A DNA stretch of 23,469 bases, from IMG/VR virus record IMGVR_UViG_3300028025_003835, positions 1-23,469 of that record. One strand, written 5' to 3'. Made by a program: the position numbers and the translations under genes. The notes below the pieces were generated by a model that saw nothing but the letters and a program-made list of their open reading frames with translations, was not told the origin of the DNA and searched no databases. Positions 458-21,986 of this stretch are shown here, piece by piece. This stretch comes from a virus. Positions within the stretch are counted from its first letter, which is position 1. Every line of letters begins with the position of its first letter.

Positions 458-2305
458 TTAGGATTTTATATAGTCTACAAGTATGAGGTCTCCTAAGTCA
501 GGAGCGTTAGCAAAAGTGATCTGGTTAGCAGCTGACTCTGTATAGTCATTACCTGCCCCAGGACTGTACCGCACACCATTGACATACACTTTAGTAGTGC
601 CCGTCTGGTAGTTGTTGGTCAGTGTATATACTTTGTTTGAGCTGTTTCTAAGACCAGTGATGGCACTGTCATAGTCCGAGACAAAGCTCCCGGAGGTTAA
701 AAACGTGCTGGTAGTTACTGATCCGTCAGCCATCAGGAACTGAGTAGACGTACCGCCTGCTTTTATAAACGATGTGGCGTTGACAGATCCTGACACAGTG
801 ATCAGATTGGTAGACTCAGTCATGATACTGTTACCAATGTCACTGGCAGAGTTAAACTTGACAATCTTTCCTGCTGTACCGGACCCTGTTACGGTTCCTG
901 CTGCACCACCTGTGGCGGATAACACACCACCAGAATAAGACAATCCGGATCCTATAGTAGCTGTTGCCAAAACTCCTGTAGCATCTGTAATAACAAACCT
1001 GTCACCCGTGCCAGCAAGTGCTGTGGCTTTTATATTGTTCAGATTAAGAAATCCAAATCCTGTACTACCATTGTGGAGTTTAAGGGTGTTAGCTGCAGCT
1101 ACTTCCAAACCTACCGTGTAAGTCACAGAGTTTGTAGTACTTGCTGTGGTCCAGGCTATACCGGTATCCACCTTTAGTTTTAAGGTGGTATTGTTTAAAG
1201 ACATGGGAGACAGCTGATCTGTCTCATTGTTCCACATAATAGAACCAGGATCTACATTGTTGCTACCAACAGACCCCATGTACCACTCCTTACCACCTGA
1301 TCCGGATGTATCCAGTCCTACAAAAGCCTGACCACCCCCGGTACGGTATGCGTAGAAGCCTTGGGTAGCCCTGTATAATTTAGCTTTTACTTCGGCATAG
1401 GTATTACTAGTACCTGTGTTAATCTGCAAAAGCCCGGTAGATTCTCTGGAAAGAGCTATGTCAGGTGTACCCCAAGATAGCAATGTAGAAGACCACGCCA
1501 TCTTTACGTCACTACGAACAGCATACCGGTCAGTGTTCCAATAGGCCAACTCTACCTGGCTAGGCTGATACTGGTAGAGCATTAATCCGGTAACGCTTGT
1601 ACTACCTCCGTAAAATCCCCAGACCGTTCCGTTTACATCTGTATTATTAAAATCTATTTCAGCACCATATCCCCAAGAGGCAGTTGAGTAAAGTGCCAAA
1701 ATACCATAGTCGTTATACCACTCTAGCTTTGTTGATGCGTTTAAAGTGTTAGCCGTATCAGACCCGGTAATAACCCTCAGAGCAGCGTTGTTATTTATAG
1801 TAACCGCATAGTTAGGAATGTTTAGAACATCATTGATAAAAGTAGATGCTCCTGATGTTCCTGTAGTAGTGAGTGTTATTGTATGCTGGTAACCTGCCAG
1901 AGCATGGTCTCCCCAGGTGTAAGCTGTTTTACCTTGTTGTACATCAACATACAAAGGCACCACATACCCGCTGGATAGTCTCAGAGAGATTGTACCCGCT
2001 GTAGTAATGGGAGCTCCTGTGATAAACATACCTTCCGGAGCCGTCATGTTAATGGCAGTAACCGTTCCTACTGCTGTAGGTGTGCCACCACCTCCACCAC
2101 TACCGCCGGATCCACCGGTGCCTGATGTGTCAATGCTAATGGTGACATCACCTGTACCAGGGTCTACTCCTGTTGAGGATATAGATATCCCGTTCCCGGC
2201 TATGATCTTCCTGATCACTGCCTGGTTTGGGGTGGTAGTGTTTAACGCATATCTAATTACGGAGCCCCCTAAAATGTCTGTAGAACCATTGATGTATTCC
2301 GACAC
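458..2305 (-). CDS. Tail fibre protein, 615 aa, modular beta-rich
   Basis: This is probably a tail fibre or receptor-binding protein. A TGA stop lies directly upstream in frame, so translation must start at the GTG at 2305 or later; GTG fits best and follows the previous stop closely. Residues 1-60 are a conserved fibre opening with an 'AGNGISI' motif. A Gly/Ser linker follows at about 61-75. A 'TAINMTAPEGMFITGAPITT' block and a 'WGDHALAGYQ' motif come next, then a beta-rich middle. The C-terminus carries 'TKVYVNGVRYSPGAGNDYT' and ends 'LGDLILVDYIKS', a classic fibre C-terminal domain. Modules such as '[21 protein letters not shown]' are shared with the 1511-aa fibre. Composition is rich in Thr, Ser, Gly and Ala and poor in Cys. 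There is no enzymatic motif. Confidence 0.85.
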   Translation of the reverse strand: MSEYINGSTDILGGSVIRYALNTTTPNQAVIRKIIAGNGISISSTGVDPGTGDVTISIDTSGTGGSGGSGGGGGTPTAVGTVTAINMTAPEGMFITGAPITTAGTISLRLSSGYVVPLYVDVQQGKTAYTWGDHALAGYQHTITLTTTGTSGASTFINDVLNIPNYAVTINNNAALRVITGSDTANTLNASTKLEWYNDYGILALYSTASWGYGAEIDFNNTDVNGTVWGFYGGSTSVTGLMLYQYQPSQVELAYWNTDRYAVRSDVKMAWSSTLLSWGTPDIALSRESTGLLQINTGTSNTYAEVKAKLYRATQGFYAYRTGGGQAFVGLDTSGSGGKEWYMGSVGSNNVDPGSIMWNNETDQLSPMSLNNTTLKLKVDTGIAWTTASTTNSVTYTVGLEVAAANTLKLHNGSTGFGFLNLNNIKATALAGTGDRFVITDATGVLATATIGSGLSYSGGVLSATGGAAGTVTGSGTAGKIVKFNSASDIGNSIMTESTNLITVSGSVNATSFIKAGGTSTQFLMADGSVTTSTFLTSGSFVSDYDSAITGLRNSSNKVYTLTNNYQTGTTKVYVNGVRYSPGAGNDYTESAANQITFANAPDLGDLILVDYIKS

Positions 2306-2317
2306 TCAGAGCGTTTA

Positions 2318-2626
2318 TTAGGGTTGTGCTACTACCAGTTCAAGATTAAGTTTCTCTGCTACGTATTCGTAAGCAGCTTCGTTGGAGTTATCCCAGTCAA
2401 TATAGTCCTGGCCACCCATGTACATCTGACCACTGGCCACTGTTTCATTGATAGCCATTGGAGGCATAATAGGTTCTGGACCTTCTGGTGCTTCTGCAGC
2501 CACCATGATACGGTATGAAAAAGTAGCATACGTGTTCAGGTCATCATAGGAGCTGGCTACACTTAGCAGGCTTGCTTCTTTCAGAGATCCTTCATGCCAG
2601 ATGTTTACAGGGGTGATTGCTTTCAT
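2318..2626 (-). CDS. Small phage protein, 102 aa, paralogue of the 96-aa neighbour
   Basis: I do not recognise a named family. The protein starts MKAITPVNIWHEGSLKEASL and aligns along its whole length with the 96-aa product encoded just upstream. Shared features are an N-terminal 'MK.I..(V/I)N(V/I)W..G..K.A.L.S' block, a 'DDL' near residue 30, an aromatic-rich middle, a 'G..Y..W' pair and a C-terminal 'AY...A..LNL'. The two genes are 9 bases apart and are clearly a tandem duplication. No signal peptide or membrane segment is seen. Position between fibre genes suggests a small virion-associated protein or fibre chaperone, which is inference only. The leader before the ATG is A/T-rich (TTAATTAATAACT) with no Shine-Dalgarno motif. 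Confidence 0.75.
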   Translation of the reverse strand: MKAITPVNIWHEGSLKEASLLSVASSYDDLNTYATFSYRIMVAAEAPEGPEPIMPPMAINETVASGQMYMGGQDYIDWDNSNEAAYEYVAEKLNLELVVAQP

Positions 2627-2635
2627 AGTTATTAA

Positions 2636-2926
2636 TTAAGGTGTTGTTGTTATCACTAAGTTTAGTTGACCAGCTGCCCAGGTGTAGGCATATTCGTTAG
2701 TATCCGCATTTGCTTTCCAGGTGGTGTAAGCTGATCCTGAAATACTGATATTACCTTCTGCAACCGGGTATGGTATGTAAGGCTCTACCAAATTACTTTC
2801 TTCCAGTAGTTCATAATAAAAGTCTGCCGCTGTAGCCAGGTCATCATTAGTAACTCTTAGGCTGAATAGTTCCGCGGTCTTGATCGTTCCTTTGGTCCAT
2901 ACGTTGATGGTCTCAATGGTTTTCAT
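2636..2926 (-). CDS. Small phage protein, 96 aa, paralogue of the 102-aa neighbour
   Basis: The open frame extends upstream to an ATG at 3016, but I place the start at the ATG at 2926. From there the sequence MKTIETINVWTKGTIKTAEL matches the N-terminus of the paralogous 102-aa protein. The upstream extension would overlap the end of the 247-aa gene and has no counterpart in the paralogue. The leader before 2926 (TGTAAACCCTACAAAC) resembles others in this window. Conserved points with the paralogue are 'DDL' near residue 30, a Tyr-rich stretch, 'G.AY..W', and 'YAY.WAAGQLNL' at the C-terminus. Function is unknown. Setting in the fibre cluster suggests a virion or assembly role. Confidence 0.75.
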   Translation of the reverse strand: MKTIETINVWTKGTIKTAELFSLRVTNDDLATAADFYYELLEESNLVEPYIPYPVAEGNISISGSAYTTWKANADTNEYAYTWAAGQLNLVITTTP

Positions 2927-3005
2927 GTTTGTAGGGTTTACAATTAATAAATAAGAACAGGTCCTATTATGTGTCGTCAGGGTCCTTTTCAGGTTTGGCC
3001 TGCCG

Positions 3006-3749
3006 TTATATTCCAAAAAATCCCATCATTCCAAATGGGTCAAATCCTCCACTTACTGGTGCAGTTGCTGATTCTCGCATTCTTACTAGGAACATACTAC
3101 CTGTGTGAGCAGCTCCTAATGTGGTAGTTACCGTAACAGCTGCTGTAGCTGTTCCTAAAATTGCAATATTATAACCGCTTCTTGCAGACATGTCACCACC
3201 AGTTGTTGTAGTAAAACCAACAGCAGGTTGACTGTTAAAAGCACCAAATGTCATACCGGATGCTGTAGGGGTAACATCACCTATTGTACCGGCATCTGAA
3301 CGAGTGGTTATAACTGATGCAACCCAGTCATTGACAGCCAGGTCAATAGCTGGAGTTGTAGCCGAGAAACCTGTACCTGCTGTATTATCACCACCACCTC
3401 CAAAAGCCAGGTCCCAGAACAATAAGGCATCCTTGCTGAATACGACTATAACACCACTACCAACGTTAACACCAGCGTTTGTAACTGTTGGGTTAGTCTC
3501 TGTACCGGTATGTATCTTCCAGAATATTCTGGCTTGCATTGAACCTACGTCAATACCTGCAGCAACAGTACCATCTGTAGCAGCACCACCATTATTCCAG
3601 GCGTTATTAATAGTGGGGGCACCACTAAAGGGTTTACACCCATAAAACAGTATCATCAAGTCACCAGCTACAGCTCCTGCAGGAATTGCGGGAGTAATAT
3701 TACCAGCGGCTGCTGTATATGTACCTGTTGCTCTGAATCCTATTGCCAT
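3006..3749 (-). CDS. Beta-rich putative virion protein, 247 aa
   Basis: The protein opens with MAIGFRATGTYTAAAGNITP and has a 'PAGAVAGDLMILFYGCKPF' block near residues 22-41. Similar 'AGDL..L' openings recur in phage tail-associated beta-sandwich proteins. The rest is rich in Gly, Ala, Thr and Val, without charged helices, as expected for a secreted or virion beta protein. The C-terminus is Gly/Phe/Met-rich (GGFDPFGMMGFFGI), an unusual hydrophobic tail that could anchor it to another fibre component. The start codon overlaps the stop of the upstream 66-aa gene (TAATG), so the two are probably translationally coupled. No catalytic motif is visible. A tail or fibre accessory role is inferred from composition and position. 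Confidence 0.7.
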   Translation of the reverse strand: MAIGFRATGTYTAAAGNITPAIPAGAVAGDLMILFYGCKPFSGAPTINNAWNNGGAATDGTVAAGIDVGSMQARIFWKIHTGTETNPTVTNAGVNVGSGVIVVFSKDALLFWDLAFGGGGDNTAGTGFSATTPAIDLAVNDWVASVITTRSDAGTIGDVTPTASGMTFGAFNSQPAVGFTTTTGGDMSARSGYNIAILGTATAAVTVTTTLGAAHTGSMFLVRMRESATAPVSGGFDPFGMMGFFGI

Positions 3750-3949
3750 TAGTAATATTTACTGTAATCGTTAGCTATTAAATAATCTATGATCTCCTGG
3801 TCAGTCATGGTATCAGGGAAAGTAAACGGACTCCTGGATTCGTGTTGAAAAAAGACTCCGTTCTTGTGTACACAGAGTTCAGCAATCATACTGATGGTAC
3901 CGTTACCGTTGTCTACTTTTTCTACCAGATGTATTTCTTGTGTTGTCAT
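3749..3949 (-). CDS. Small hypothetical protein, 66 aa
   Basis: This is a compact, charged protein of unknown family. It reads as beta strands at residues 1-45 (EIHLVEKVDNGNGTISMIAE, then LCVHKNGVFFQHES), followed by a short C-terminal helix around 'TMTDQEIIDYLIANDYSKYY'. The gene fits tightly: it starts 5 bases after the stop of the 582-aa gene, and its TAA stop overlaps the ATG of the 247-aa gene. That packing supports it as a real gene. The stop codon of the preceding gene sits inside its leader (TAACTAACATG). Function is unknown. Confidence 0.7.
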   Translation of the reverse strand: MTTQEIHLVEKVDNGNGTISMIAELCVHKNGVFFQHESRSPFTFPDTMTDQEIIDYLIANDYSKYY

Positions 3950-3954
3950 GTTAG

Positions 3955-5703
3955 TTAGATTTCATATCCGTTAAGCTGAACATATAATGTCATGGCTGCA
4001 GAAGTAGTTATTCTAAGAATGTGGTCTATTGTACTAGACACAAAGGGTACGTTGAATGACTTGACAGCTCCCGGCTTTACCGTAGCAGAAGGAGCAAATT
4101 CACCCCTGAATATAACAGGATCGGTACCTGTTGTATACGTGGTATCCGCAGCAGCTCCCTGCCATAGAGTAACTACACCTGCTGTCGTACCACCCGTAGA
4201 AATAGTAATATCTGTCACGGCAAATCTCCTACCGGTTGTAGGTGTCCATAAAGCAGCACCGGTCTGTGCTGTGGTATATTCACCGTTTCTATGAACCAGT
4301 GTATATCCAAAGTTATGAGGAGCAGCACCGGTATCAATACCACCTAAGAATTGATTACCATTAGTAAGGTTGATAGCATGAGCTACTGTTGCACCAAGTG
4401 TTGTCACCGTTCTAAGTCTTACCTGACGATATCCTTGAGCAATTACCTGATACACCTTTCCTGCTGTTGGGGTAAGGTTTTGACCACTCACCCATAAATC
4501 TACGGCACCGTCAAATACCTCAAGTGGAATAAAGGTTGTATTGTCTGCAGTTCCCTCAATAATAAATGTACCTGTAGTAGTTGTGCTTATTGCTATGGTA
4601 ACAGCAGCGGCTCCGTCAACGTTAAACGTAGAGGCAGAGTTTGCAGCAGTACCTAAGTTAGTAGGGTTAGACCTGATAGAAAAACCAGGACCTGTACCTA
4701 CAGCAAGAATACCCACAGCTGTATCGTTAGCAGCATTACCAGCAAGAGCGGTGTCCGTTTTGATCCTGTCCCAGGTTGTTCCGTTAAAAGCTTCTATACA
4801 AGATCCTACGTGAGGAGCTGTAGGGTTAGCTGTTGAATCACCCAGAGCAGTGGCTGCTGGAAGTTCTGTGTCTACAGTACCAGTTACACTGACACCAATA
4901 GCCTGACCTGCTACAGAGATACCTCTACCCGCTGTAATTTCAGCGGTAAGTTCTGCGTAGTCCTGGCAAGCTACAAACTGCAGAGAAGAAGTAGTAGTAC
5001 TAGCAGGAGTTGTGCCGTTTAACCAACGAAGTCTTATTTTATAAGAAGCATTGGGATCAGGAACCTGTTGGTGCCTTCGGTAAGAGTTTACCCTTCCAGA
5101 GTTGGCATCCAGGGTTCCGGAGTGCCACCAGCACTCGTCAGAAAACGGTTCAAATTCAAATACACCAGTACCTGTAGTAGGGTTAAAAGAGGTAGCTGCA
5201 CTGATCAGGGCAGCTTGTCCTCCATTAGCTGTAAAGTATTTAGCAAGGTTGGCGTTGGTACCGTCAAAGAGAAAACCTGCAGTGTGTAATCCGTCTGCTA
5301 CACCAGTGGTAGCGTTAACAGAGATCACCTCTACATAGAACTCCTGGTTGGCAATACGCTGAGACATCGTCAACTGAAACGACAACCTGAACGGAATGGT
5401 AAACCACTCCACAGAAGTAAGAGATGTTGTACTGGCTGAAGTGGTTCCACTCACCAGGTTCACAACACCAGATCCTACGGTGATACTTCCACCTGCTCCT
5501 ATACTGCTTGTCCATTTTGCACCGTCCACGCTGGTTCCGACAAAGCTGTCCCTGAACTTTTTCTGCATGGACTTGATCTTAAGCATGTCGTCCTGTGTGT
5601 CATAGCCTTTCATGGCTATAGGAGCCTGATCGGAAGCTATGACTACCGGTGAGGAGTTTACACTAGTTGCTGACCCGTTGGGGTTATTAGGATTATATGC
5701 CAT
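3955..5703 (-). CDS. Tail/fibre structural protein with lectin-like and beta-sandwich regions, 582 aa
   Basis: The N-terminus has 'NSSPVVIASDQAPI', a short motif that recurs in structural proteins of many phages. Residues of about 50-230 ('FRDSFVGTSVDGAKW' to 'YKIRLRWLNG') read like a concanavalin/lectin-type jelly roll, with alternating strands and aromatic positions typical of sugar-binding folds. A middle section around 'SIRSNPTNLGTAANSAS' and 'GTADNTTFIPLEV' is another beta domain. The last 130 residues ('FGYTLVHRNGEYTT' to 'LYVQLNGYEI') form a further beta sandwich and could be the receptor-contacting tip. The gene begins 2 bases after the stop of the 1511-aa fibre. The likely role is a tail-tip or fibre protein contacting surface glycans. 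The fold assignment is inference from sequence pattern. Confidence 0.75.
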   Translation of the reverse strand: MAYNPNNPNGSATSVNSSPVVIASDQAPIAMKGYDTQDDMLKIKSMQKKFRDSFVGTSVDGAKWTSSIGAGGSITVGSGVVNLVSGTTSASTTSLTSVEWFTIPFRLSFQLTMSQRIANQEFYVEVISVNATTGVADGLHTAGFLFDGTNANLAKYFTANGGQAALISAATSFNPTTGTGVFEFEPFSDECWWHSGTLDANSGRVNSYRRHQQVPDPNASYKIRLRWLNGTTPASTTTSSLQFVACQDYAELTAEITAGRGISVAGQAIGVSVTGTVDTELPAATALGDSTANPTAPHVGSCIEAFNGTTWDRIKTDTALAGNAANDTAVGILAVGTGPGFSIRSNPTNLGTAANSASTFNVDGAAAVTIAISTTTTGTFIIEGTADNTTFIPLEVFDGAVDLWVSGQNLTPTAGKVYQVIAQGYRQVRLRTVTTLGATVAHAINLTNGNQFLGGIDTGAAPHNFGYTLVHRNGEYTTAQTGAALWTPTTGRRFAVTDITISTGGTTAGVVTLWQGAAADTTYTTGTDPVIFRGEFAPSATVKPGAVKSFNVPFVSSTIDHILRITTSAAMTLYVQLNGYEI

Positions 5704-5705
5704 TG

Positions 5706-8700
5706 TTATATGATTAGCCAGTTAGAGTTATCGGAAACAAGGGTGATAGATTCATCCACCTTGTTTATAGTAGCTGTAAGACCACCGTCTATGGTTTCAG
5801 TAGTTGCTCCATCTATAGTGAGAGCAGCAGTACCTGCTGTTTTCTTGATGATGATGGTAGCTGTGTTACCAACAGCTGTGGGGAGCGTTATGACAAAGGT
5901 ACCGCCACTTGTATCAGCTTTGATGATCTTAGTACCACTTGTTGCCGTTTCTGAATATGTTGTGGAAACTGATGTGACAGAGTAAGCACTGCCACCGCCA
6001 GGGATTGCCTGGGTAGACAGCACACCTAAAGCATCGGCCACCACCATGCGTGTACCTGATCCACCAAGAACGTCTAATCTTACAGCTCCATCATCTATCC
6101 AGACTGCATAGTTGTTAGTAATAGTAGCCGTTCCTGTTGCTGCTCCTTCTATGTATAAGGTAGCTCCGTTAGTTGTACTTCCTGCACCATCATTAACTAT
6201 TAAAGGCTTAATAGAAAACTGAGCAAACATGTTATGAGTACCGGCAGAGGATTCTGCAACAGTATTTCCTATTAATAGGAAGGAAGAATAACTAAGGTTA
6301 GCACCTAACGTTGTATTTAAGGCAGTTGCAATAAGTCTTCCAAAAGTAGTTTGACTTACTCCCGCTAAAGTTGTGGTTATTCCAGGTGTACCTGCTGAAA
6401 ATTCGTTTGCTGTTCCTGTTGCGTTAAGTCCGTTTAAAAATGACTTTAGACCAGCAATATTTTGTGCTGCTGTACTTACCAATCCTCTTGCAGTTCCACT
6501 TGCACTTGGTATGTCAAAAGTATGCGTGGTACCTGTAGATGTAATAGCAAAGTCTGTTCCTGCTGTTCCAGTAGCAAAAGTTTGAGTTGCTCCAGTAAGG
6601 GTATTTAATGTAGTAATACCTCCACCAGAAATTGTAGCCCAGGTATTGTCACCCCTTAGATATGTAGTAGACGAAGGTGTACCGGTTGCACTAAGATTAG
6701 CTATACCCACCACCGAGTTAGCCAGGGTAGTAGTAATAGCAGTTGTACCAGATCCGGTTACTGCTCCTGAAAGCGTGATAGATTGGTTGGTTGTTAAATA
6801 AACAGAGCTGTCAAACACCCATGTATTGGTACCCGTACCTGTGTATCTAAGGAATCCGGCAGTAGCTCCTAAGGTAGGAAGTGCCACACCACGAAGACCC
6901 ACTACAGTAAGAGCCGTTGCTCCCGTAGCATCTCCAGTATGTGTAGCATTACTAACCAGTCCACTATATAGTGAGTTAACTGCGTTGTCTCCGGTGTTAG
7001 ATCCGGAAATAGAGGATGTACCGGTTACAGCCAAAGTAGGCGTAGTAGATCCTGAGATGACCACGCTATTTACTGACGTTGGTGTAATAGCACCTAACGT
7101 AAGTGTAATTGCAGGCGTGGTTGTAGACGTAGCTACGGTTCCGCTTACTCCATTGGCAGTAGTGACAGAAACAGACGTTACTGTACCTGTGTTATTGGTA
7201 TAGCCTGACGGGTTAGAGGCTAGGTAATAAGTGTTTGTATCCAGGGCAAAAGTTCCTGCGGCTGTCATCTTCACAAATGACGTAGACGCAAAAGCAAGTC
7301 CTGCCAGGGATGTTAGGTTGGTACTTGATGCCTGGTATGCGGTAGATGCAGTAAATGCAGCAGATCCAAGTGTACCACCAGCCCCAATGTTCAAAGTAGA
7401 AGCATCTGTACCGGCAAGTGTCAGGGTATTTGATACCGTAAGTGTTTTAGAAGTAGTACCACCCGCTATAGTAAATCCAGTAGCAGCTGCAGTGAACGTA
7501 AGTCCATTTACTGTACTGGGTGTGATAGCTCCTAGTGTCAGGGTAATAGCCGGTGTTGTACCTGCTGTGGCCACTGATCCTGAAATACCGTTTGCTGTAG
7601 TAACTGATACCGTAGTAACAGTACCCGTATTGGTTGTATATCCAGAAGGATTAGAAGATAAGTAGTAAGTATTGGTGTCCAGAGCAAAGGTACCGGTTGC
7701 CGTCATCTTCACAAATGAGGTGGAGGCAAACGTTAACCCGGCTAAAGAAGTCAGGTTAGTAGAGGCTCCCTGGTAGTCTGTACCAGCTACAGCAGCTGAG
7801 ATTGCTGTTCCGTTACCCTTGAGGATACCGGTAATCGTAGTGGTCAGTGTGATAGCAGGTGTAGACGACGCAGTAGCCACCGTACCAGCAAAGCCATTGG
7901 CAGACACTACGGATACGGATGTTACGGACCCTCCACCACCTGGTGTTGTCCAGGTGCCATCTGCCCGCAGGAAGTTGGTAGTACCGCCACCGGATGCTGG
8001 GGCTAAACCTTTGAGGGTAGCTGAGAATACATCAAGTAGTGTAGTGGCCTGTGTACCGGTTATGTTTTCAACGTTGCCCGTAGCTGCTGTTACTCTTCCA
8101 TGGAAAGTAGCAGTAGGGATCTGGGCGAGCATGGCATTGGTCACCCTGTTAGCACCAATGGTAGTAGTAATAGCGGTTGTTCCTGTACCAGAAATATCCC
8201 CAGAGAGGGTGATGGACTGGTTAGCTGTTAGATAAGTCGCTGTATCAAATATCCAGGTGTTTGTACCTGTGCCGGTATATCTTAAGAATCCTGCACTGGC
8301 TCCAAGAGCTGGCAGGGCTACTCCTCTGAGTCCTACAACAGTCAGTGCTGTAGATCCGGTAGCGTCACCCGTGTGTGTGGCGTTACTGACAAGACCACTG
8401 TAAAGAGAGTTTACTGCATTATCACCGGTATTGGATCCTGAGATAGAAGACGTACCTGTCACTGCCAGTGTGGGTGTCGTGGATCCGGAGATCACAACAC
8501 TGTTCACAGAAGTTGGGGTGATGGCTCCCAGGGTAATCGTGATAGCGGGTGTGGTAGTTGATGTAGCCACAGATCCGGATACACCATTGGCAGTAGTAAC
8601 GGAAACTGAGGTCACTGTACCTGTAGTAGAAGAGGTACCTGCCCCTATAGCACTACGGAAGGTAGCGGCATCTAATGTAGATACGCTATTATCCGCATTG

Positions 8701-10241
8701 ATACGAATAAAGGTGATGGCTGACGGGTTAGTCAGTGTAAATACGTTAGATCCTACCGTAGTAGCACCTAAAGAAGTTCTGCCCGTAGCTGCTACAAGTC
8801 CTGTAGATCCACCGTCCCATTTTAGTCGGTCTGTAAACGCTGTATCCCAGTTGCTCTGGGAAGTTGTTGTAGGAATAGCATATCCACTGGTCAGAGAAAA
8901 TACACCCGTAGTATTGGTATAGGTAAGCCCTGTAGCTGTAGAAGAAAGAGATGTCAGGCTAATACCACCAAGGCTTGCCAGGGAAATGGTCACTATACCT
9001 GTGTTTCCGTTAACACTTTGTACCGCTCCATTGGCTATACGTATGTACGCAGAGCCGGACCAACGATAAGTCTCATTGGTATCCAGGGCTACGTAGATCT
9101 TACCCGTTGTACCTGTTGCAGGAAATGCTGCCAGGTTAGCGTATTCCAGTACGTCATCCACGTAGGAAGGAAGCTGGGTAGAAGGAACAAGTCCAGAGCC
9201 ATCTAAAGAAGCATACCCGTTAGCCTGACCTTTCTGACTGGTTACCTGGTAACCCGCAGAGGCGTGGTTACCCCATCCATAAGCGGTATCCCAGTTTGTT
9301 TGTGACGCAGTTGTTGGTATAGAATAACCGGCAGCAAATGTGATATCTAAACTACCGGAACTTGTTATAGGGGAATTGACAACACTAAGACCGGTAGGTA
9401 CAGTTAAACCAACAGAAGTGACCGTTCCGGTGCTTCCACTTGGGATAGCCTGGGTTGATAACACACCCGTTGACAGGGCAACTACCATCCTGGTTCCAGT
9501 GCCTACTAATGACGCTGCATATATTGTCCCATTTACCTGCACAGTAGCTCCATTATCAGAGGGTACCGATCCGGATGGACCGGCAAAAGCTACGTTACCA
9601 TTGGCAAAGAAAGTAACAGGATACCTGTAGGCAAAGGTAGTGGCATTGTACGTACTCACCTGCAAACTACCAGGACCACCTTCACCAGCACTTTTGGAAA
9701 CTCCACCCAAGTTAAACTCGGTACTGTATATGCCATTTTTCATGGCAAAACTGGTCTGGTAATCCCAGGTGGAATCTAATACAACGCTTTTAGTAATTGT
9801 ATTTGACGCCATCAAGGTCAACCTGGACTGCGTATTAGGTGAGGCTGTTCCAATACTTACAATAGATCCATTGTCATAGATGACACTAGCACCTAAAGTA
9901 GCAGAACCCGTCCACTTAGTAATATAGTTTGTCGTGCCGGAGCCACTTACACCAGTAGCGTATTGTGGTATATTCAGAGCACCCGTTCCCGCATTAAACG
10001 TAGCTGCCCCGGATGTACCAGTAGTTGTAAGTGTAATGGGAATCTGATAGTCGGCACCTGATCCGATAAGGATCCAGGTAGTACTAACAGCATTGTAATA
10101 GTATATCTTTTTATTGCCTGTATTATAATACACCTGCCCGTCCACTGCATTAAGTGGTGCCGTGGCAGCATTGTGCAGAACCCCGTTGATCAACTGGTTC
10201 TGACTTAAATCAATATCATGTAGGTATAATTTTGTAGGCAT
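5706..10241 (-). CDS. Giant repetitive tail fibre protein, 1511 aa
   Basis: This is the largest gene in the window and probably forms a long trimeric tail fibre. Residues 1-65 are an attachment-type opening ([20 protein letters not shown], then '[16 protein letters not shown]'). Around 270-400 are '[15 protein letters not shown]', '[10 protein letters not shown]' and '[12 protein letters not shown]', a common fibre module. Residues 541-695 and 1019-1173 are two long repeats nearly identical in protein. Related 'GTVT(S/T)VSVTTANG' units occur between them, preceded by two copies of '[20 protein letters not shown]'. The C-terminal 85 residues ('[20 protein letters not shown]' to '[13 protein letters not shown]') are a typical fibre-tip beta domain. 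Composition is Thr/Ser/Gly/Ala-rich and almost Cys-free. Two bases separate it from the 207-aa gene upstream and from the 582-aa gene downstream. Confidence 0.9.
6723..7187 (-). repeat. Long internal repeat of the giant fibre, copy 2
   Basis: This encodes residues 1019-1173 of the 1511-aa fibre. It matches copy 1 (residues 541-695) almost residue for residue, from '[16 protein letters not shown]' through '[19 protein letters not shown]' to 'NQSITLSG'. The codons differ strongly from copy 1: in the 15-codon stretch at 6963-7007, 10 codons differ and every change is synonymous. Confidence 0.85.
8157..8621 (-). repeat. Long internal repeat of the giant fibre, copy 1
   Basis: This encodes residues 541-695 of the 1511-aa fibre, about 155 residues, and is repeated 478 residues later as copy 2. 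Protein differences are few and conservative (for example S/T, I/L, S/A). The DNA of the two copies has drifted at most third positions, so no long exact DNA repeat remains. Confidence 0.85.
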
Positions 10242-15878: not shown

Positions 15879-17498
15879 TTAGAATGATCCACCAGTTACA
15901 GGGTTTCTCATAACGATCTTCAATACTTTAGTAGGATCTTTAACCCATACTGCAGGCATTGTTTGTGTCATGAATACTCTGTAGCCATTGAAGTTGCCAG
16001 AAGACTGGAAACCTTGAGTACGTCCCATGTAATCCATGGTACCGTTCTGATAGAACCATTTCAATTGATTATCCCAAGACAGCTTCAACAAGTAGATGTT
16101 GTCGTTAGTGTTCTCAGTGACATCAAAAATGATGAAGTTGTAAGAAGACAATGGGAAACCGTCAATGATTGGGTTCTCAATGTCATTGGTGTGTACGTTG
16201 TCAAACGCTGGGTTCAACACAAACTTTACGTTAGCCAGGAATGGGATAACATATTGAGTGTATGCAAAACCAAAGTTGAGGTCCATACCTTTACCAGTGA
16301 TGGCTCCGACTTCAGAAGCGTTGATAACAAGTCCGCTGTTGATAGCTTCCTTCTTAATTGCTTCATTCACCAGACGCATACCACCCATACCGGTTTGTAC
16401 GATCAACTGACGCTTAGGATCTGGTCCCTGGAACTCAACCTTACCATTGAAGAAGTTGAAGATCTCAGATTTGAACAGATCAAGATTGAAAGATGCTTTG
16501 TTGTAAATACGCTTGAAAGAGTTATCAAGCTGCTTCCAAAGACCCACAGAAAGGCGGATATCATCTGGACCATCTTGCTTAACCTTTCCACCCTGTCCCC
16601 ACATGAGGTAGGTTTCAATGTCATTGGCAATCTTAGTCAGGTGAGCTGCTTCCAAAGTGGTCAAGAACGTACGAGACAATTGACCAGACTGGTAAGCTTT
16701 CTTTACGTAGTCTTTACCCATCTTTTCGGCCATGCCTTCCAGAGAGTTTACAGCAGGATCAACGCTCTTGTCAAAGTTTCTCCACATCTCAATTACAGGA
16801 ACAGTACCATCGGCTTTCATTCCACCTTTCAACATGAGGTCAGCACGTGAGCTGATGCTGTAGTGAACGTGAGCTTCAGCACCTCCAACGTAGTTGTAGA
16901 ATTCGCGGAAACCTGCAGAAACGTTACCAAGATCAGAGAATTTCTCTCCGTATTCCCCACGGGCAGAACCCTTACGGAACATCTTGGTACCTTGGCGAAC
17001 GTATTTGTTCTCAAGGAATTTAGTAGAGTCGTTGTTAACGAGCTGTACAGTGTAGATGAAACCGTCACCAGCAGGGATGATGTCATCCGCAGTGATGTAA
17101 AGTTCCACACCATTGTACTTGTCATAAGTGATGATATCACCATGACCAAAAGAACGCTTGTTTACCTTGATCTTGAATGACTGACCGTCAACACCTTTTG
17201 TAGCGTTGGCAGACTCAATGTCTTCAACGATGTAAGGCAGATCTTGGGCAACAGGCACTTGCCATTTGTACTCACCACGGCTGTTATCTACGGAGATAAC
17301 ATTCTTTCCGCCAAAAGAAGACATTTGGTAAAGAGGCATTTCTACCTTTTGTGCCATTGCCCATAGGTCAACTGGTCCCAGGTCTGTGGGTTCAGCTGAT
17401 TTCAGCAGGTTAGAGAGGTGGTAAGAATCTACGTGTGAGCTAGTTTGATAGCTTGTATCCCGTAGAAAGATACCATTGTTAAGAACTGGAGTTGCCAT
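15879..17498 (-). CDS. Probable major capsid protein, 539 aa
   Basis: This is the best candidate for the HK97-fold major capsid protein. It lies directly after portal and scaffold-like genes, is of suitable size, and has a soluble mixed alpha/beta sequence with no membrane segment. An N-terminal arm ('RDTSYQTSSHVDSYHLSNLL') is followed by 'VDLWAMAQKVEMPLYQMSSF' and a beta region near 80-180. A helical stretch with 'NSLEGMAEKMGKDYVKKAYQ' lies near 250. 'LIVQTGMGGMRLVNEAIKKE' and the final 'MPAVWVKDPTKVLKIVMRNP' fit a spine and A-domain. It has a special leader (see 17511-17529) and a hairpin right after its stop, both expected for an abundant product. The fold is inferred; sequence alone does not prove it. 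Confidence 0.8.
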   Translation of the reverse strand: MATPVLNNGIFLRDTSYQTSSHVDSYHLSNLLKSAEPTDLGPVDLWAMAQKVEMPLYQMSSFGGKNVISVDNSRGEYKWQVPVAQDLPYIVEDIESANATKGVDGQSFKIKVNKRSFGHGDIITYDKYNGVELYITADDIIPAGDGFIYTVQLVNNDSTKFLENKYVRQGTKMFRKGSARGEYGEKFSDLGNVSAGFREFYNYVGGAEAHVHYSISSRADLMLKGGMKADGTVPVIEMWRNFDKSVDPAVNSLEGMAEKMGKDYVKKAYQSGQLSRTFLTTLEAAHLTKIANDIETYLMWGQGGKVKQDGPDDIRLSVGLWKQLDNSFKRIYNKASFNLDLFKSEIFNFFNGKVEFQGPDPKRQLIVQTGMGGMRLVNEAIKKEAINSGLVINASEVGAITGKGMDLNFGFAYTQYVIPFLANVKFVLNPAFDNVHTNDIENPIIDGFPLSSYNFIIFDVTENTNDNIYLLKLSWDNQLKWFYQNGTMDYMGRTQGFQSSGNFNGYRVFMTQTMPAVWVKDPTKVLKIVMRNPVTGGSF

Positions 17499-17505
17499 AG
17501 GGCAT

Positions 17506-17529
17506 CGGATTTAAGGGGTTATTAAAATG
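17506..17529 (-). promoter_or_regulatory. Conserved leader motif before the capsid gene
   Basis: The minus-strand leader reads TTTTAATAACCCCTTAAATC and ends 7 bases before the ATG. Its core ATAACCCCTTAA is also present before the 502-aa gene at nearly the same spacing. In other respects the leader lacks a Shine-Dalgarno sequence. It may be a translation enhancer for abundant virion proteins or a promoter part. Confidence 0.5.
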
Positions 17530-17535
17530 AATAAG

Positions 17536-18792
17536 TTATCTCTTGAATATGTTGGCCGGTCTGGTAAGCTTACGCGACCTGGTCTCTTCTTCTTCCTGGA
17601 ATGTGTTGGTGGTTTTACGGGACTGCTCAGTTTTAAGCTGGCGTACCGTTTGTTCTACTGCCGCATTCTTGCCGGCTTTTGTAAGTTGTGAGCGGTATGT
17701 GTCCGGATCACTGAGCAACCAGAGAGCTTCAGCAATAAGTGAGTAGTTGGGTTCAACAAACTGGTATTTCTCTAACAGGTGTCCAAGCAAGTTGGTAGGT
17801 CTTCCACTGATAGATGGATACTGAGGCTGTGTAAGACCGCTGTAAAGTTGAGCCTGGGTTTTCTTGTCCAGTTTCAGACCATTGATCTCAGCAGGACGAA
17901 GGGCTTCAAATACATTTTGCATGTATGCCTGGGCAGCTTGTTCCTGTTGTTGCTTACGGCCTTCCTGTTCTGCCAGTTGAGATTGAACAATCTCTTCCTG
18001 CATCATGTCAAGCTTTGGCTTAAACTGCTTGGCTTTCTTTTCCAGTACACCAAGGTCTTTCCAGGTGGTCAGCTCTTCTTCAATCTCTTCCGTAGTACCA
18101 AACTGTGTAGCTTGTAAATACTGGCGGATGATGCTTTCCTGGTCTCCTTCTTGTGTTGGGTCCATTTCCCTCACTTGCTCTACCTGAGCCAGTGCCTGGA
18201 AGAGTCCTTTTAGATCCTGGCCACCATCAGCTACATATTTAGCAGCATACTGCAGTTCATCAGGAAGGGATTCAAAAAACTCTTGCGGAGTCTTGGCAGC
18301 TACCTCCTGTTTCATGTTATCTACATTGGCTTGCCAGAGCTCATCTATATCTTTTTCTCCAAGGGTACCGAGGTAATCCTCCAGAGATTGTTTACTTTCA
18401 TCAAAGTCATCAAAGGCAAACATTTCCTTTGACTCAATACGCTTCTTTAGAAACTCCACCAGTCCGGACTTTTCTGTTTTAGGTCGTCCACCTTTAGACT
18501 TCTTGTCGTCAGTCTGGTCTTCATTCTCCAGGTCGTTAACAAGCTCATCCATTGTTTCACGGGAAACGGGCCCTTTAGAGTCTTCATTAGGCTTAGCAGG
18601 ATCTGCATCTTCTTTATCATCATCGTCGTCTAAAAAAGAAAGATCAGGAGCCTTGGACGAAAAGATGTTGGGCTTGGTCTCAGCAGGTTTATCCGGAGTG
18701 ACGATGCTATCTGCACCGGGGGCTCCTAACCAGCTGTCAATATCAAGGTCTACTTGTTGTACAGATGTCTGTACGGAGGTTGAGGTTTCCAT
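17536..18792 (-). CDS. Scaffold-like capsid assembly protein, 418 aa
   Basis: The gene lies between portal and capsid, the classic scaffold position. The N-terminal 120 residues are disordered and very acidic ('SFLDDDDDKEDADPAKPNED' near 52-71), ending in a basic patch ('KKSKGGRPKTEKSGL'). The middle is helical and charged, with a Gln/Glu-rich coiled coil around 'MQEEIVQSQLAEQEGRKQQQ' (about 265-295). The C-terminus is again basic ('TRSRKLTRPANIFKR'), as in scaffolds that contact the capsid shell. No protease catalytic motif is visible. The gene is preceded by a 127-base gap holding an inverted repeat, and is followed after 37 bases by the capsid gene. Scaffold is inferred from position and composition. 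Confidence 0.7.
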   Translation of the reverse strand: METSTSVQTSVQQVDLDIDSWLGAPGADSIVTPDKPAETKPNIFSSKAPDLSFLDDDDDKEDADPAKPNEDSKGPVSRETMDELVNDLENEDQTDDKKSKGGRPKTEKSGLVEFLKKRIESKEMFAFDDFDESKQSLEDYLGTLGEKDIDELWQANVDNMKQEVAAKTPQEFFESLPDELQYAAKYVADGGQDLKGLFQALAQVEQVREMDPTQEGDQESIIRQYLQATQFGTTEEIEEELTTWKDLGVLEKKAKQFKPKLDMMQEEIVQSQLAEQEGRKQQQEQAAQAYMQNVFEALRPAEINGLKLDKKTQAQLYSGLTQPQYPSISGRPTNLLGHLLEKYQFVEPNYSLIAEALWLLSDPDTYRSQLTKAGKNAAVEQTVRQLKTEQSRKTTNTFQEEEETRSRKLTRPANIFKR

Positions 18793-18820
18793 AGGTTATG
18801 TTGGGTTTTTTTATGATGGA

Positions 18821-18875
18821 GTTCTACAATAAGAATATACAACTTTAAACCTTAAGAATTTACGTTGTGTAGAAC
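18821..18875 (-). promoter_or_regulatory. Inverted repeat in the portal-scaffold gap
   Basis: The 127-base gap between portal and scaffold genes has no open frame. It contains perfect 8-base arms GTTCTACA (18868-18875 on the minus strand) and TGTAGAAC (18821-18828), 39 bases apart, with a CAAC/GTTG pair continuing inward. The enclosed sequence is A/T-rich and includes a CTTAAG palindrome. It could be an operator or promoter region for the scaffold-capsid unit, or an RNA stem 28 bases before the start codon. No clear promoter consensus is seen. Confidence 0.45.
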
Positions 18876-18919
18876 TTGGAGAGCTGAATAGTGGATAATA
18901 GAGCTATAACTAAGGAGTC

Positions 18920-21667
18920 TTACTTGGATTTCTTAGAAGAATTTGGTACGTCATACTTGTTTTTGTTCTCCTGGGCTACCTGCAGCTGTTTTTCAGCAAT
19001 CTCCCTTTGGGTTTGGAGCTTTTCCCTATCTATCTGGATCTTTTGGGTACCTATCTCTTTCTTAGTAAGTTCACTTTCCCTTTTCAGGTTCATCTGGTCC
19101 TGGTAGCGTTGCTCGTCACGGATCTTTTCCAGGGCATCCATGTAGTCTGACTGCTGATTTTGGTTGATGTCAACCGCAGAGCCGTAGCCTGCAGCCCGGA
19201 TCTCAGCCACGGTGATGTCCTTTTGGATCATCTTGTCGTCACGATCTCCCTGGGCTTGTATCTCCATAGCCCTTTGTTTTTCCTGGGCAGCAATCATTTC
19301 CTGCTGCATTTGCTGTTGTTGCTGCATCTCAGCTTCTTTCTGGGCCATGGTCTTTTGCTCTGCCTGTTTCAGTACACTGGTAAGCTCGGCTATAGACTCA
19401 CTCTTGATAATGTTACCCAGATCATAAATAGAAGCACCTGCTGTATTGTTAGACAGGGCCAGCTGCTTAAGCTGTTCCATCACTGACCTTGAATTGGTCT
19501 TGGTGGTGCAGAATATATTGAGGTCACGCAGCAATAGATCAGTACCGTTCATTTGGAAGTTTACCTTCTCATGGCCTGTAGTGATATACTGAAGGCGTAC
19601 TGAAGGTTTTCTGGAGTGGTAATACTGGGCCAGGTCGGTACGCATCTGGTGCACCCGTGGCATCAGGTTGTCAGAGTGCTGAATAAAGTATTGCTCAGTC
19701 TGGGCGTACGAAGCATTCATGGCTTGCTGTACACCAGTAGCTGTTTCCTGAGCAATCATCTGACCCATGCGTTGCGGGTTCAGACCAATCACCTCAAATG
19801 CCTGGTTCTTAAAATACGTAGCCAGCTGAATGCGTGAAAGCAAACGATTGGTCTGCTCCAGATTCAGTACCTGGTAGTGCTGAAAGCTCAAGGCATTTTC
19901 AGTGTTGGTGATCGTGGTATCCAGTGGCAGCATCTGGAAGTTCTTCATAGCCACATAGGCATTGGCCAGGTTATTTTTACCCCAGTCTTCTCCCATGGAG
20001 TGACGTGGTAAAGCGTTCTGGTCCAGCAGAATCACTGTACCCAGTTCATCCACCAGGATGTCAGCGATCTGATTGTTCACGATGTTGTAGCCTATCTGGT
20101 ATGGCTTCATCAGGTCAACCAGTGAAATACTGCGGGTGTTTCTGTCACCGAATACAGCACCTTCCACCGGAAGCTTGCAACCATAGAGTGTTGAATCTCC
20201 TTTAAACTGGAATGGGATACGTCCGGGTTTTCCACCGTTGAGGCCCAAATAGATGGGATTGATACCACCCGGGTTGTTCTGGCCCCAGAATGCAGGACGG
20301 TTAGGTCCAATCTTAATACCACCCCAGGTCTCGTTGATCCAGATCCAGTCAATATGTTCTCCAAAGACTAAGTTTTCTTTGGACTTTTGTTTATAAACAA
20401 CCGTATTGTACATAGGCTTATCGGTCACCTTGTACTCTTCGGATATAATGTCTTGAATGATTTCACCTTCTTCTGTAATCTTGGTCAGGTGACCCACTTT
20501 ACGCTGACTTTTCCAGTAGATCTGGGATACACGAAGCAGGTTGGTTTTACCAAAGTCTACGGTGTCCTCAGAATCACCCAGGATCCATTCTACAATGTCA
20601 CCCGTACCAAACTTGGTATCATACAAACTTGTAAACTGACGATATGCCAAAGAAGGCATTTCTGTATTCCACTCGTGTGAGCGGGTAGCGTCATAGTAGG
20701 ATCCGTCATTTTGGTATCCTTGTACAGCGTAACCGGCAGAACGTACAGGATAGATGGCTTCTAACGCCTCTAACTGTTCCTGGTTCATCATCCAGCCAAA
20801 CTTGTCAATCACGTCAGAGACACTCAGCAGGTCAATTTTACCTACCCAGTTACCCTGGGAAATATACCTGGAATCAGGACTTTTAGAATAAAAAGTAAGT
20901 AGCGGGTTCCACAGCTCCAGCTCATAATCGTCTTCTCCCATCTGGAAATGCCAGAACTCACGGTCTGCAATCAGCATGTCCCTGAAGGCACGCTCTTCCA
21001 GTTCCTGCATCTTAAAGCGTTCCTCATCTACCAGCATTTGGTGAGAGGCCCACTGCTCAATCATGGACCGATAGTTGGTCCTGAAGAAAGCTTCTATTTC
21101 AGGCAGTTTTTTTAAAGCATCAGGAGCCGTGGCTTGTTGAGCTTCTTCACTGTCCATTTCCACACCCATGGTTACCATCTGGTTCTGGATCTTAACCTGG
21201 GCTTCCTGTAAAAGCACGTCTTCGATCATCTGGCGTTTTTCCTCCAGCATTTCATTGTAGGAAATATCGTCTACCGCTTTAAACATGATCCGGCTGGAAC
21301 GCTTGGAAAACTCGTTACACAGTACATTTACGACATTGGGAATAATGGGATAGAACTTCAGTTCCAGGGCTGACTGATCTTCTTTAGTCAAAGTGTCAAT
21401 CAGATCTGCCATCTCGTTGTTCTCTTCTACGATGTAGTCAGCCTTATCAATAATACCCTTGGCCAGTTTGTAGTTCTTCATCAACCTGCGGGCGTTGCGA
21501 CGCAGTTGTTTCATGCCCTGGAATTCGAGCCAGTCCAGGTTCCAGGCACGCCACTCATCATCCTTATCCTTTCCAGGCAGGAATTGAATGGGTTGCGTGA
21601 GAGTACCCATCTTGTTGTACTCCACTTTTTTCCCGGCTTTTAAGTCAAGGGCATTATATATCTGCAT
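18920..21667 (-). CDS. Portal protein, 915 aa
   Basis: This is the dodecameric portal through which DNA is packaged. The N-terminal region has 'LRRNARRLMKNYKLAKGIID' near residues 55-75 and 'KFYPIIPNVVNVLCNEFSKR' near 104-123. That is the conserved opening of large portals of the T4/crAss-like style ('Y.....G..D' then 'PI..P.VN.L..E..KR'). The clip/wing region is long, with 'RSHEWNTEMPSLAYRQF' and 'GLNGGKPGRIPFQFKGDSTL'. A long helical stem follows ('ENALSFQHYQVLNLEQTNRL'). The last 150 residues are a Gln/Glu/Lys-rich coiled coil ('EMQQQQQMQQEMIAAQEKQR'), probably the barrel or an extension into the head. At 915 aa it is larger than many portals. It starts 5 bases after the stop of the 103-aa gene. 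Confidence 0.85.
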   Translation of the reverse strand: MQIYNALDLKAGKKVEYNKMGTLTQPIQFLPGKDKDDEWRAWNLDWLEFQGMKQLRRNARRLMKNYKLAKGIIDKADYIVEENNEMADLIDTLTKEDQSALELKFYPIIPNVVNVLCNEFSKRSSRIMFKAVDDISYNEMLEEKRQMIEDVLLQEAQVKIQNQMVTMGVEMDSEEAQQATAPDALKKLPEIEAFFRTNYRSMIEQWASHQMLVDEERFKMQELEERAFRDMLIADREFWHFQMGEDDYELELWNPLLTFYSKSPDSRYISQGNWVGKIDLLSVSDVIDKFGWMMNQEQLEALEAIYPVRSAGYAVQGYQNDGSYYDATRSHEWNTEMPSLAYRQFTSLYDTKFGTGDIVEWILGDSEDTVDFGKTNLLRVSQIYWKSQRKVGHLTKITEEGEIIQDIISEEYKVTDKPMYNTVVYKQKSKENLVFGEHIDWIWINETWGGIKIGPNRPAFWGQNNPGGINPIYLGLNGGKPGRIPFQFKGDSTLYGCKLPVEGAVFGDRNTRSISLVDLMKPYQIGYNIVNNQIADILVDELGTVILLDQNALPRHSMGEDWGKNNLANAYVAMKNFQMLPLDTTITNTENALSFQHYQVLNLEQTNRLLSRIQLATYFKNQAFEVIGLNPQRMGQMIAQETATGVQQAMNASYAQTEQYFIQHSDNLMPRVHQMRTDLAQYYHSRKPSVRLQYITTGHEKVNFQMNGTDLLLRDLNIFCTTKTNSRSVMEQLKQLALSNNTAGASIYDLGNIIKSESIAELTSVLKQAEQKTMAQKEAEMQQQQQMQQEMIAAQEKQRAMEIQAQGDRDDKMIQKDITVAEIRAAGYGSAVDINQNQQSDYMDALEKIRDEQRYQDQMNLKRESELTKKEIGTQKIQIDREKLQTQREIAEKQLQVAQENKNKYDVPNSSKKSK

Positions 21668-21672
21668 GATCT

Positions 21673-21984
21673 TTAGTTATTTAGGTCAGCAGTTGGTGTG
21701 CTGGGGGTATTTAGAAAAGCGGTGGTAGTTGTAGAACCTAGATTAGAAGTAGAAAGTGTAATTGTTCCAGAGCCTGTCCCGGAGGCCATGAAGGGAAAAG
21801 TGCCATGGTAAGGTGCAATCCAGGTTGATCCAGGGGTAATGCCGGGATTGACGACTGTAGGCGTTGATTCTATAACCTCTTCTTCCTGTAACAAAAGCAG
21901 GGCTTCTTCCAGGGTGAGGGAACTTTCTTTGACCAGGCGGCTGAGGATAGTCACCTTTTGGGTGTGCAGGGTAGGAGTTTCCAT
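21673..21984 (-). CDS. Small protein between terminase and portal, 103 aa
   Basis: Its family is not recognised. The N-terminal 40 residues form one amphipathic, acidic helix pair ('TILSRLVKESSLTLEEALLL' then 'LQEEEVIEST'). The C-terminal 60 residues are Ser/Thr/Gly-rich and beta-like ('PGITPGSTWIAPYHGTFPFM', 'GSGTITLSTSN'). It starts 2 bases after the terminase stop (TAACTATG) and ends 5 bases before the portal ATG, so it is surely translated with them. Position suggests a packaging or head-vertex accessory. It is not an evident terminase small subunit, since no clear DNA-binding domain is seen. The C-terminal part resembles decoration-type or fibre-type sequence. Confidence 0.65.
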   Translation of the reverse strand: METPTLHTQKVTILSRLVKESSLTLEEALLLLQEEEVIESTPTVVNPGITPGSTWIAPYHGTFPFMASGTGSGTITLSTSNLGSTTTTAFLNTPSTPTADLNN

Positions 21985-21986
21985 AG

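What the first reader, a model, noticed from the sequence alone, without database searches (positions are those of the whole stretch)
6723..8621. Fibre repeats with conserved protein but scrambled codons
The 1511-aa fibre has two ~155-residue repeats (residues 541-695 and 1019-1173) that are nearly identical in protein. At the DNA level most wobble positions differ. In the stretch [15 protein letters not shown], 10 of 15 codons differ and all changes are synonymous (8397-8441 versus 6963-7007). Other repeated units, such as '[16 protein letters not shown]', show the same look. This could be an old duplication held by strong protein selection, or selection against exact DNA repeats that would recombine and shorten the fibre. 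Either way, synonymous divergence appears far above protein divergence.
Basis: partly seen in the sequence, partly recalled or inferred. Interest (0 to 1): 0.65.

Follow-up and report, generated by a model that had tools for sequence, protein, structure and literature searches.

The report
Codon-scrambled repeats in a phage fibre
A tail-fibre gene of a crAss-like phage carries two copies of a protein segment that are 90% alike as protein but share no more codons than chance, which is best explained by very old, widely traded fibre parts kept constant at the protein level and not by selection against repeated DNA.

Summary
Repeats A (541-695, window 8621-8157) and B (1019-1173, 7187-6723) share 140/155 residues with saturated synonymous sites (pS 0.787, pN 0.070). 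They share 42 of 139 codons; random codon choice predicts 45.0. The contig is a crAss-like structural fragment.

Selection against exact DNA repeats is not supported: codon sharing is at chance, exact repeats are no rarer than after codon shuffling, and across 181 related fibre ORFs in-gene copies are not less similar at silent sites than matched copies in unrelated phages.

Strong protein constraint on old copies is supported. In L020/L024 the internal copies are silent-saturated (18/48 codons) while each nearly matches its orthologue (52/53, 47/52). But A and B need not be a duplication of this gene: B shares more codons with copies in L003 and L016 than with A, in phages whose portals are 21-30% identical. 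Best reading: exchanged, ancient, protein-frozen fibre modules. Ordinary in kind; unusual is the degree of constraint, beyond nearly all capsid and portal windows tested.

The parts
5706..10241 (-). 1511-aa tail-fibre-like protein gene containing all repeats
   Evidence: ORF; PHROG matches phrog_8309 at residues 7-62 and phrog_15439 at 329-408; Pfam none
8157..8621 (-). repeat copy A (residues 541-695), modules N1+K1
   Evidence: 140/155 aa identical to B, 42/139 shared codons, pS 0.787
6723..7187 (-). repeat copy B (residues 1019-1173), modules N3+K2
   Evidence: shares more codons with L003 and L016 copies than with A
8475..8621 (-). module N, first copy (residues 541-589)
   Evidence: 47/49 aa to N3, 14/47 codons vs 14.1 expected
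7479..7625 (-). module N, second copy (residues 873-921)
   Evidence: 34/49 aa to N1 and to N3
7041..7187 (-). module N, third copy (residues 1019-1067)
8157..8441 (-). module K, first copy (601-695), core [29 protein letters not shown]
   Evidence: 82/95 aa to K2, 26/81 codons vs 27.5 expected; 24 of the 28 invariant columns among 11 copies of the unit lie at unit residues 62-94
6723..7007 (-). module K, second copy (1079-1173)
7626..7808 (-). module X, first copy (812-872), [10 protein letters not shown] type
   Evidence: 47/61 aa to X2, 14/46 codons vs 16.5 expected
7188..7370 (-). module X, second copy (958-1018)
   Evidence: X-N spacing 146 aa; L002 holds X-N-like matches at about 140-146 aa spacing
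15879..17498 (-). major capsid protein, used to place the phage and as yardstick
   Evidence: Pfam Crass_capsid E 3.9e-31
18920..21667 (-). portal protein, used as yardstick
   Evidence: phrog_6547 portal E 1.3e-91

Best explanation
The fibre is a mosaic of standard modules (X, N, K) that circulate among crAss-like and other environmental phages. A and B are two N+K cassettes that separated long ago, long enough for silent sites to randomise completely, while the protein is held by strong purifying selection (omega at most about 0.04). At least one copy probably reached this gene by recombination with another phage and not by a recent in-gene duplication. The scrambled codons are then neutral drift towards each genome's codon usage, with no selection on the repeats as DNA. 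Shown: saturation, chance-level codon sharing, protein constraint, antiquity of paralogues in related fibres, presence of the module in phages with very different cores. Inferred: the exchange route, and that the constraint comes from fibre-shaft folding or trimerisation.
For: Codon sharing A-B equals random expectation, 42 vs 45.0 of 139. A codon-redraw simulation needs at least about 1.5-2 synonymous substitutions per codon: P(42 or fewer)=0.007 at 1.5 and 0.100 at 2. With dN 0.073 that gives omega of about 0.04 or less (arithmetic). Non-homologous-gene pairs between phages also combine high protein identity with silent saturation: among non-orthologous cross-phage 60-aa windows at 85-90% aa, 114 of 344 have no residual codon similarity. 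Orthologous fibre pairs keep both copies and their order: L020/L024 paralogues 48/53 aa with 18/48 codons (20.0 expected), orthologues 52/53 and 47/52 codons; similar contrasts in L059/L063, L027/L070 and L173/L174. B shares codons with L003b more than with A (32 vs 12 discordant sites, p=0.004) and with L016 (32 vs 14, p=0.011). Those records have portals only 21-22% (L003) and 28-30% (L016) identical, terminase 25% and 35%, and capsid not detected and 24-29%, whereas the unit is 77-90% identical. Third-position GC of carriers' fibres runs from 0.057 to 0.525.
Against: A and B are the closest pair at protein level in the N part (58/60 in segment 1-60, versus 49/60 for B-L003b) although B's codons are closer to L003b (23/49 vs 16/58); simple exchange plus drift does not predict that discordance. 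The p values for codon sharing are uncorrected over four comparisons (0.004, 0.049, 0.111, 0.011) and assume no site-specific codon preference. The most conserved 60-aa window shares 12 of 59 codons versus 19.1 expected (z -2.02, uncorrected), and all six 60-aa windows of this gene lie below zero. No relative with both copies in the same positions was found, so the age of this particular pair rests on saturation alone. No structure supports the shaft role: the AlphaFold model had mean pLDDT 46.4.
Confidence: 0.8

Rival explanations
1. Selection against exact DNA repeats: synonymous changes are favoured because identical copies would recombine and shorten the fibre.
For: Six of six 60-aa windows of this gene have residual codon similarity below zero, one with z -2.02; C-D pair z -1.23. 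Two near-identical strains (L044/L046) differ by exactly one 63-nt unit of a nearly DNA-identical array, so exact repeats do change number.
Against: Overall A-B z -0.55. Longest exact repeat in the gene is 17 nt and repeated 12-mers number 21, versus means of 15.2 and 10.3 after codon shuffling, so there is no depletion. Within-ORF windows with z<-1.645 are 5 of 232, against 88 with z>1.645. Within-ORF copies are more similar at silent sites than non-orthologous cross-phage copies in every bin from 0.70 to 0.90, and not clearly different at 0.90-0.95 (0.108 vs 0.147, overlapping intervals) or above 0.95 (0.268 vs 0.262). Exact repeats of 78-318 nt persist in L054, L046 and L188.
Confidence: 0.05
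2. Simple old in-gene duplication: A and B arose by duplication inside this fibre lineage and have been inherited vertically ever since.
For: Relatives such as L020/L024 show exactly such stable old paralogues; A-B is, together with A-L003b, the most similar pair in protein.
Against: B shares more codons with L003b, L003a and L016 than with A (p 0.004, 0.049, 0.011; L007 0.111), and those phages have deeply diverged cores. Fibre ORFs at the same genome position in close relatives differ in length (802-1166 aa) and module content.
Confidence: 0.13
3. Repeated rewriting by a diversity-generating or hypermutation process.
For: None beyond the high number of changes.
Against: All twelve directional third-position changes occur, 106 in all, with only 19 and 5 changes at positions 1 and 2; a diversity-generating retroelement would change adenines and alter protein (recalled).
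Confidence: 0.01
4. Chimeric metagenome assembly joined unrelated modules.
For: The record is an incomplete 23.5-kb contig.
Against: The ORF is intact over 1511 codons; other contigs show the same combination of diverged internal copies, some in orthologous pairs from different records.
Confidence: 0.01

Closest known systems
BACON-domain tandem repeats in crAss-like phage tail proteins (PMC6949934; passages and section 3.4 read)
   Same: Repeated domains in a tail protein of crAss-like phages; one lineage keeps an old duplicated array in fixed order, two others built arrays by horizontal transfer plus duplication, and similarity of the repeat region greatly exceeds that of the rest of the genome.
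   Different: Different sequence: the fibre has no Pfam match, hence no BACON domain. The words synonymous, nucleotide and recombination have no occurrence in that main text by the tool's count, so codon-level divergence was not its subject.
Tail fibres shared by distantly related Alteromonas phages (PMC10579305; search listing only)
   Same: Host-recognition modules shared across phage families, as the listed start of the abstract states.
   Different: Not crAss-like; not about internal repeats or silent divergence as far as the listing shows.
Large repetitive surface proteins of Apilactobacillus kunkeei (PMC12863079; passages read)
   Same: Giant surface proteins with intragenic recombination and dS far above dN.
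   Different: Bacterial; dN and dS there compare strains, not internal copies, in the passages read.

Membership tests
crAss-like phage (Crassvirales) structural gene cluster | Major capsid protein of the crassvirus type | tested here: met
   Pfam Crass_capsid E 3.9e-31, above cut-off; phrog_11589 major head protein
crAss-like phage (Crassvirales) structural gene cluster | Portal and large terminase nearby in the same orientation | tested here: met
   phrog_6547 portal and phrog_6681 terminase; terminase runs off the contig end
crAss-like phage (Crassvirales) structural gene cluster | Complete genome of typical size and organisation | not testable with these tools
   Record is a 23,469-base fragment
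Horizontally exchanged modular tail-fibre units | Unit far more similar between phages than their core genes | tested here: met
   Unit 77-90% identical to L003/L007/L016 copies versus portal 21-30%
Horizontally exchanged modular tail-fibre units | Module occurs in different neighbour contexts | tested here: met
   K core follows unrelated N-terminal parts in L004, L006 and L009 and is followed by other sequence in L012 and L013
Old in-gene duplicate (paralogous repeat) | Copies are each other's closest relatives | tested here: inconclusive
   Codon sharing favours L003b and L016 over A for copy B; protein identity is a tie for A (90.3% to B and to L003b)
DNA-repeat avoidance by codon choice | Fewer shared codons or exact repeats than random codon choice | tested here: not met
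   one uncorrected window at z -2.02
Diversity-generating retroelement target | Changes confined to adenines of a template (recalled definition) | tested here: not met
   All base changes seen at third positions; a reverse transcriptase was not searched for
BACON-domain repeats | Match to the BACON Pfam model | tested here: not met
   No Pfam family at E 0.01 in the fibre

The most novel reading that the evidence does not exclude
A small set of fibre modules, above all the K core ([29 protein letters not shown]), is a near-frozen standard part traded among deeply diverged environmental phages, with tighter amino-acid constraint per silent change than the capsid or portal proteins, contrary to the usual picture of fibres as the fastest-changing phage proteins.
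Probability: 0.3. Interest if true: 0.5.

Novelty: new member of a known kind. Interest (0 to 1): 0.3.

Why it matters
It separates two things often run together: host-range fibres are said to evolve fast, but here shaft-like modules are held at 90% protein identity through complete silent turnover. The residual-codon measure used here also gives a simple way to tell recent duplication, old duplication and module exchange apart in metagenomic fibres, and argues that codon scrambling of repeats need not signal selection against DNA repeats.

Tried and rejected
Selection against DNA repeats was tested four ways and not supported (long exact repeats). DGR-like mutation was rejected on substitution types. 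Overlapping antisense genes (the long + strand ORFs across the repeats) were considered: the frame whose third positions face the fibre's third positions stays 76% alike but has 2 and 1 stops in the two copies and pS 0.69 versus pN 0.13, as expected when wobble faces wobble; not pursued as a gene. Structure: one AlphaFold job on 11 copies gave mean pLDDT 46.4 and pTM 0.21 and was not used for a fold search. PDB sequence searches gave nothing useful (best E 0.22; none). Phage-record searches: 2 weak records for the 633-aa region, none for the 155-aa unit. Literature: seven searches brought up no paper on silent divergence of phage-fibre repeats among the titles listed; subscription journals are mostly not held.

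A first comparison of within-gene and cross-phage pairs (part of 47) binned whole BLAST segments by mean identity. One search showed that this diluted the A-B pair to 66% identity, so the comparison was redone with 60-aa windows, and conclusions rest on that. Dropped before counting: 46 of 227 fibre-like ORFs as near duplicates, windows under 70% identity or with fewer than 30 usable codons, and segments under 60 aa. The 'non-orthologous' class removes cross pairs with a segment of at least 150 aa and residual above 0.3, which lowers the cross-phage values. With all cross pairs kept they are 0.246 at 0.90-0.95 and 0.545 above 0.95, higher than the within-gene values (0.108, 0.268), because close relatives' orthologues are then included.

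Full report
What was checked. The window is a 23,469-base virus record. Its capsid ORF matches Pfam Crass_capsid (E 3.9e-31), with portal and terminase PHROG matches, so it is a fragment of a crAss-like phage structural cluster. The 1511-aa ORF 5706-10241 (-) has no Pfam match and two partial PHROG matches; calling it a tail fibre rests on its position, repeat content and resemblance to other repeat-rich ORFs, and is an inference.

Observation. Every coordinate and count in the finding is right. A and B agree at 140 of 155 residues, yet pS is 0.787 and pN 0.070. The right null for 'scrambled codons' is random choice of codon given the residue: expected identical codons 45.0 of 139, observed 42 (z -0.55). 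The second pair (812-921 vs 958-1067) gives 22 of 80 against 27.0 (z -1.23). So the silent sites carry no memory of common ancestry. A redraw simulation puts silent divergence at no less than about 1.5-2 substitutions per codon.

Anatomy. The repeats resolve into three modules: X (812-872, 958-1018), N (541-589, 873-921, 1019-1067) and K (601-695, 1079-1173), arranged N-K, X-N and X-N-K. Of 28 invariant columns among 11 copies of the A/B unit, 24 lie between unit residues 62 and 94, in K. K occurs after unrelated N-terminal parts in L004, L006 and L009 and before other sequence in L012 and L013. L002 holds several X-N-like matches at about 140-146 aa spacing.

Is it repeat avoidance? Four tests. 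First, A-B codon sharing is not below random overall. Second, in the whole gene the longest exact direct repeat is 17 nt, with 21 repeated 12-mers and 4 repeated 15-mers; shuffling codons among identical residues gives means of 15.2, 10.3 and 1.8, so exact repeats are not depleted (300 shuffles). Third, in 181 dereplicated fibre-like ORFs from 138 loci, 60-aa windows at matched protein identity gave pooled residual silent similarity within ORFs versus non-orthologous cross-phage pairs of 0.138 vs 0.044 (0.70-0.80), 0.203 vs 0.053 (0.80-0.85), 0.258 vs 0.059 (0.85-0.90), 0.108 vs 0.147 (0.90-0.95) and 0.268 vs 0.262 (0.95 and above); 5 of 232 within-ORF windows have z below -1.645 and 88 above +1.645. 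Fourth, related fibres carry exact internal repeats of up to 318 nt (L054). Against this, one 60-aa window of this gene (98% identical residues) shares only 12 of 59 codons versus 19.1 expected, z -2.02 without correction, and all six windows of the gene are below zero. I take this as noise around saturation but report it. One caveat from general knowledge: short-read assembly tends to break at long exact repeats, so these are under-sampled within genes; that bias would make within-gene copies look more diverged, and overall they still do not.

Is it old? In fibre gene pairs from related phages, each internal copy matches its orthologue and not its sister. In L020/L024, copies 365-417 and 672-724 share 48/53 residues but 18/48 codons (20.0 expected), while orthologues share 52/53 and 47/52 codons. 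L059/L063, L027/L070 and L173/L174 give the same contrast; over these four pairs paralogue residuals run from -0.07 to 0.25 and orthologue residuals from 0.28 to 0.98. Both copies were therefore kept apart since before those phages split. Of 12 pairs given, five (L004/L006, L038/L039, L210/L213, L183/L196 and the second ORFs of L020/L024) yielded no qualifying internal pair; L044/L046, L055/L057 and L047/L048 are near-identical strains and say little about age. Module gain and loss does occur (gaps of 10-584 aa in several pairs, some possibly at contig ends), and L044/L046 differ by exactly one 21-aa, 63-nt unit of a nearly DNA-identical array.

Was it duplicated here? At sites where all three proteins agree, B matches L003b but not A at 32 sites and A but not L003b at 12 (p=0.004); for L016 32 vs 14 (p=0.011), L003a 33 vs 18 (p=0.049), L007 30 vs 18 (p=0.111); A matches L003b but not B at 24 vs 12 (p=0.065). 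L003 and L007 lie on one contig. In the L003 and L016 records the portal is 21-22% and 28-30% identical to the window's, terminase 25% and 35%, capsid not detected and 24-29%. A unit 77-90% identical in such phages, with residual codon similarity, is best explained by exchange after the cores diverged. The protein-level closeness of A and B in the first 60 residues (58/60, against 49/60 for B-L003b) does not fit simple exchange and stays unexplained.

How strong is the constraint? Compared with 155-aa windows of the window's own capsid, portal and two other structural-block proteins against relatives at 87-94% identity, only 5 of 620 overlapping windows (all portal, 5 of 210) are as silent-saturated as A-B. 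With 60-aa windows, non-orthologous fibre modules retain less silent similarity than core genes up to 0.95 identity (for example 0.059 vs 0.149 at 0.85-0.90), but the fibre relatives were picked by exact peptide patterns, which favours high-identity stretches, and windows overlap, so these are comparisons and not tests. Carriers range in fibre third-position GC from 0.057 (L016) to 0.525 (L178), so the protein is held while codons follow each genome.

Distribution. The K core also matches 27 loci of bacterial or metagenome-assembled genomes, many labelled as Bacteroidota lineages (Flavobacterium, Emticicia, Cytophagaceae, Bacteroidales), others as Elusimicrobia or Patescibacteria. Labels are the records' own titles and may reflect binned phage contigs.

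Verdict. The finding is real and its first reading is largely right; its second is not supported. The kind is known: exchanged, repeated tail modules, as described for BACON repeats in crAss-like phages (PMC6949934, passages and section 3.4 read). The degree of protein constraint on a fibre segment is the part worth keeping.

Noticed in passing
L044 fibre ORF 4152-8709 and L046 fibre ORF 481-5101: Two near-identical strains differ by exactly one 21-aa (63-nt) unit of an array whose units are DNA-identical or nearly so: a direct example of length change between exact repeats.
   Followed up: partly
L054 ORF 5484-6942, residues 157-293 and 244-380: Related fibre with a 318-nt exact internal DNA repeat, evidently a recent duplication.
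   Followed up: no
window 6826-7203, 7231-7665, 7819-8235, 8431-8922 (+): Long antisense ORFs across the fibre repeats; the antisense frame faces wobble to wobble and so stays similar between copies. Probably a by-product of composition.
   Followed up: partly
window 458-10241 versus 15879-23375: Third-position GC is lower in the fibre-block genes (0.34-0.40) than in capsid, portal and terminase (0.47-0.55), which may reflect a different history of the fibre block.
   Followed up: no
L016 fibre ORF 3777-6690: Third-position GC of only 0.057 in a fibre whose unit is 77-81% identical in protein to the window's.
   Followed up: no
L230-L256: The K core matches 27 loci of bacterial or metagenome-assembled genomes, many Bacteroidota, some Patescibacteria and Elusimicrobia by record title.
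   Followed up: no
window fibre residues 541-600 versus 1019-1078: A and B agree at 58/60 residues here although B's codons are closer to L003b, whose protein agrees at only 49/60: protein and codon distances disagree.
   Followed up: partly
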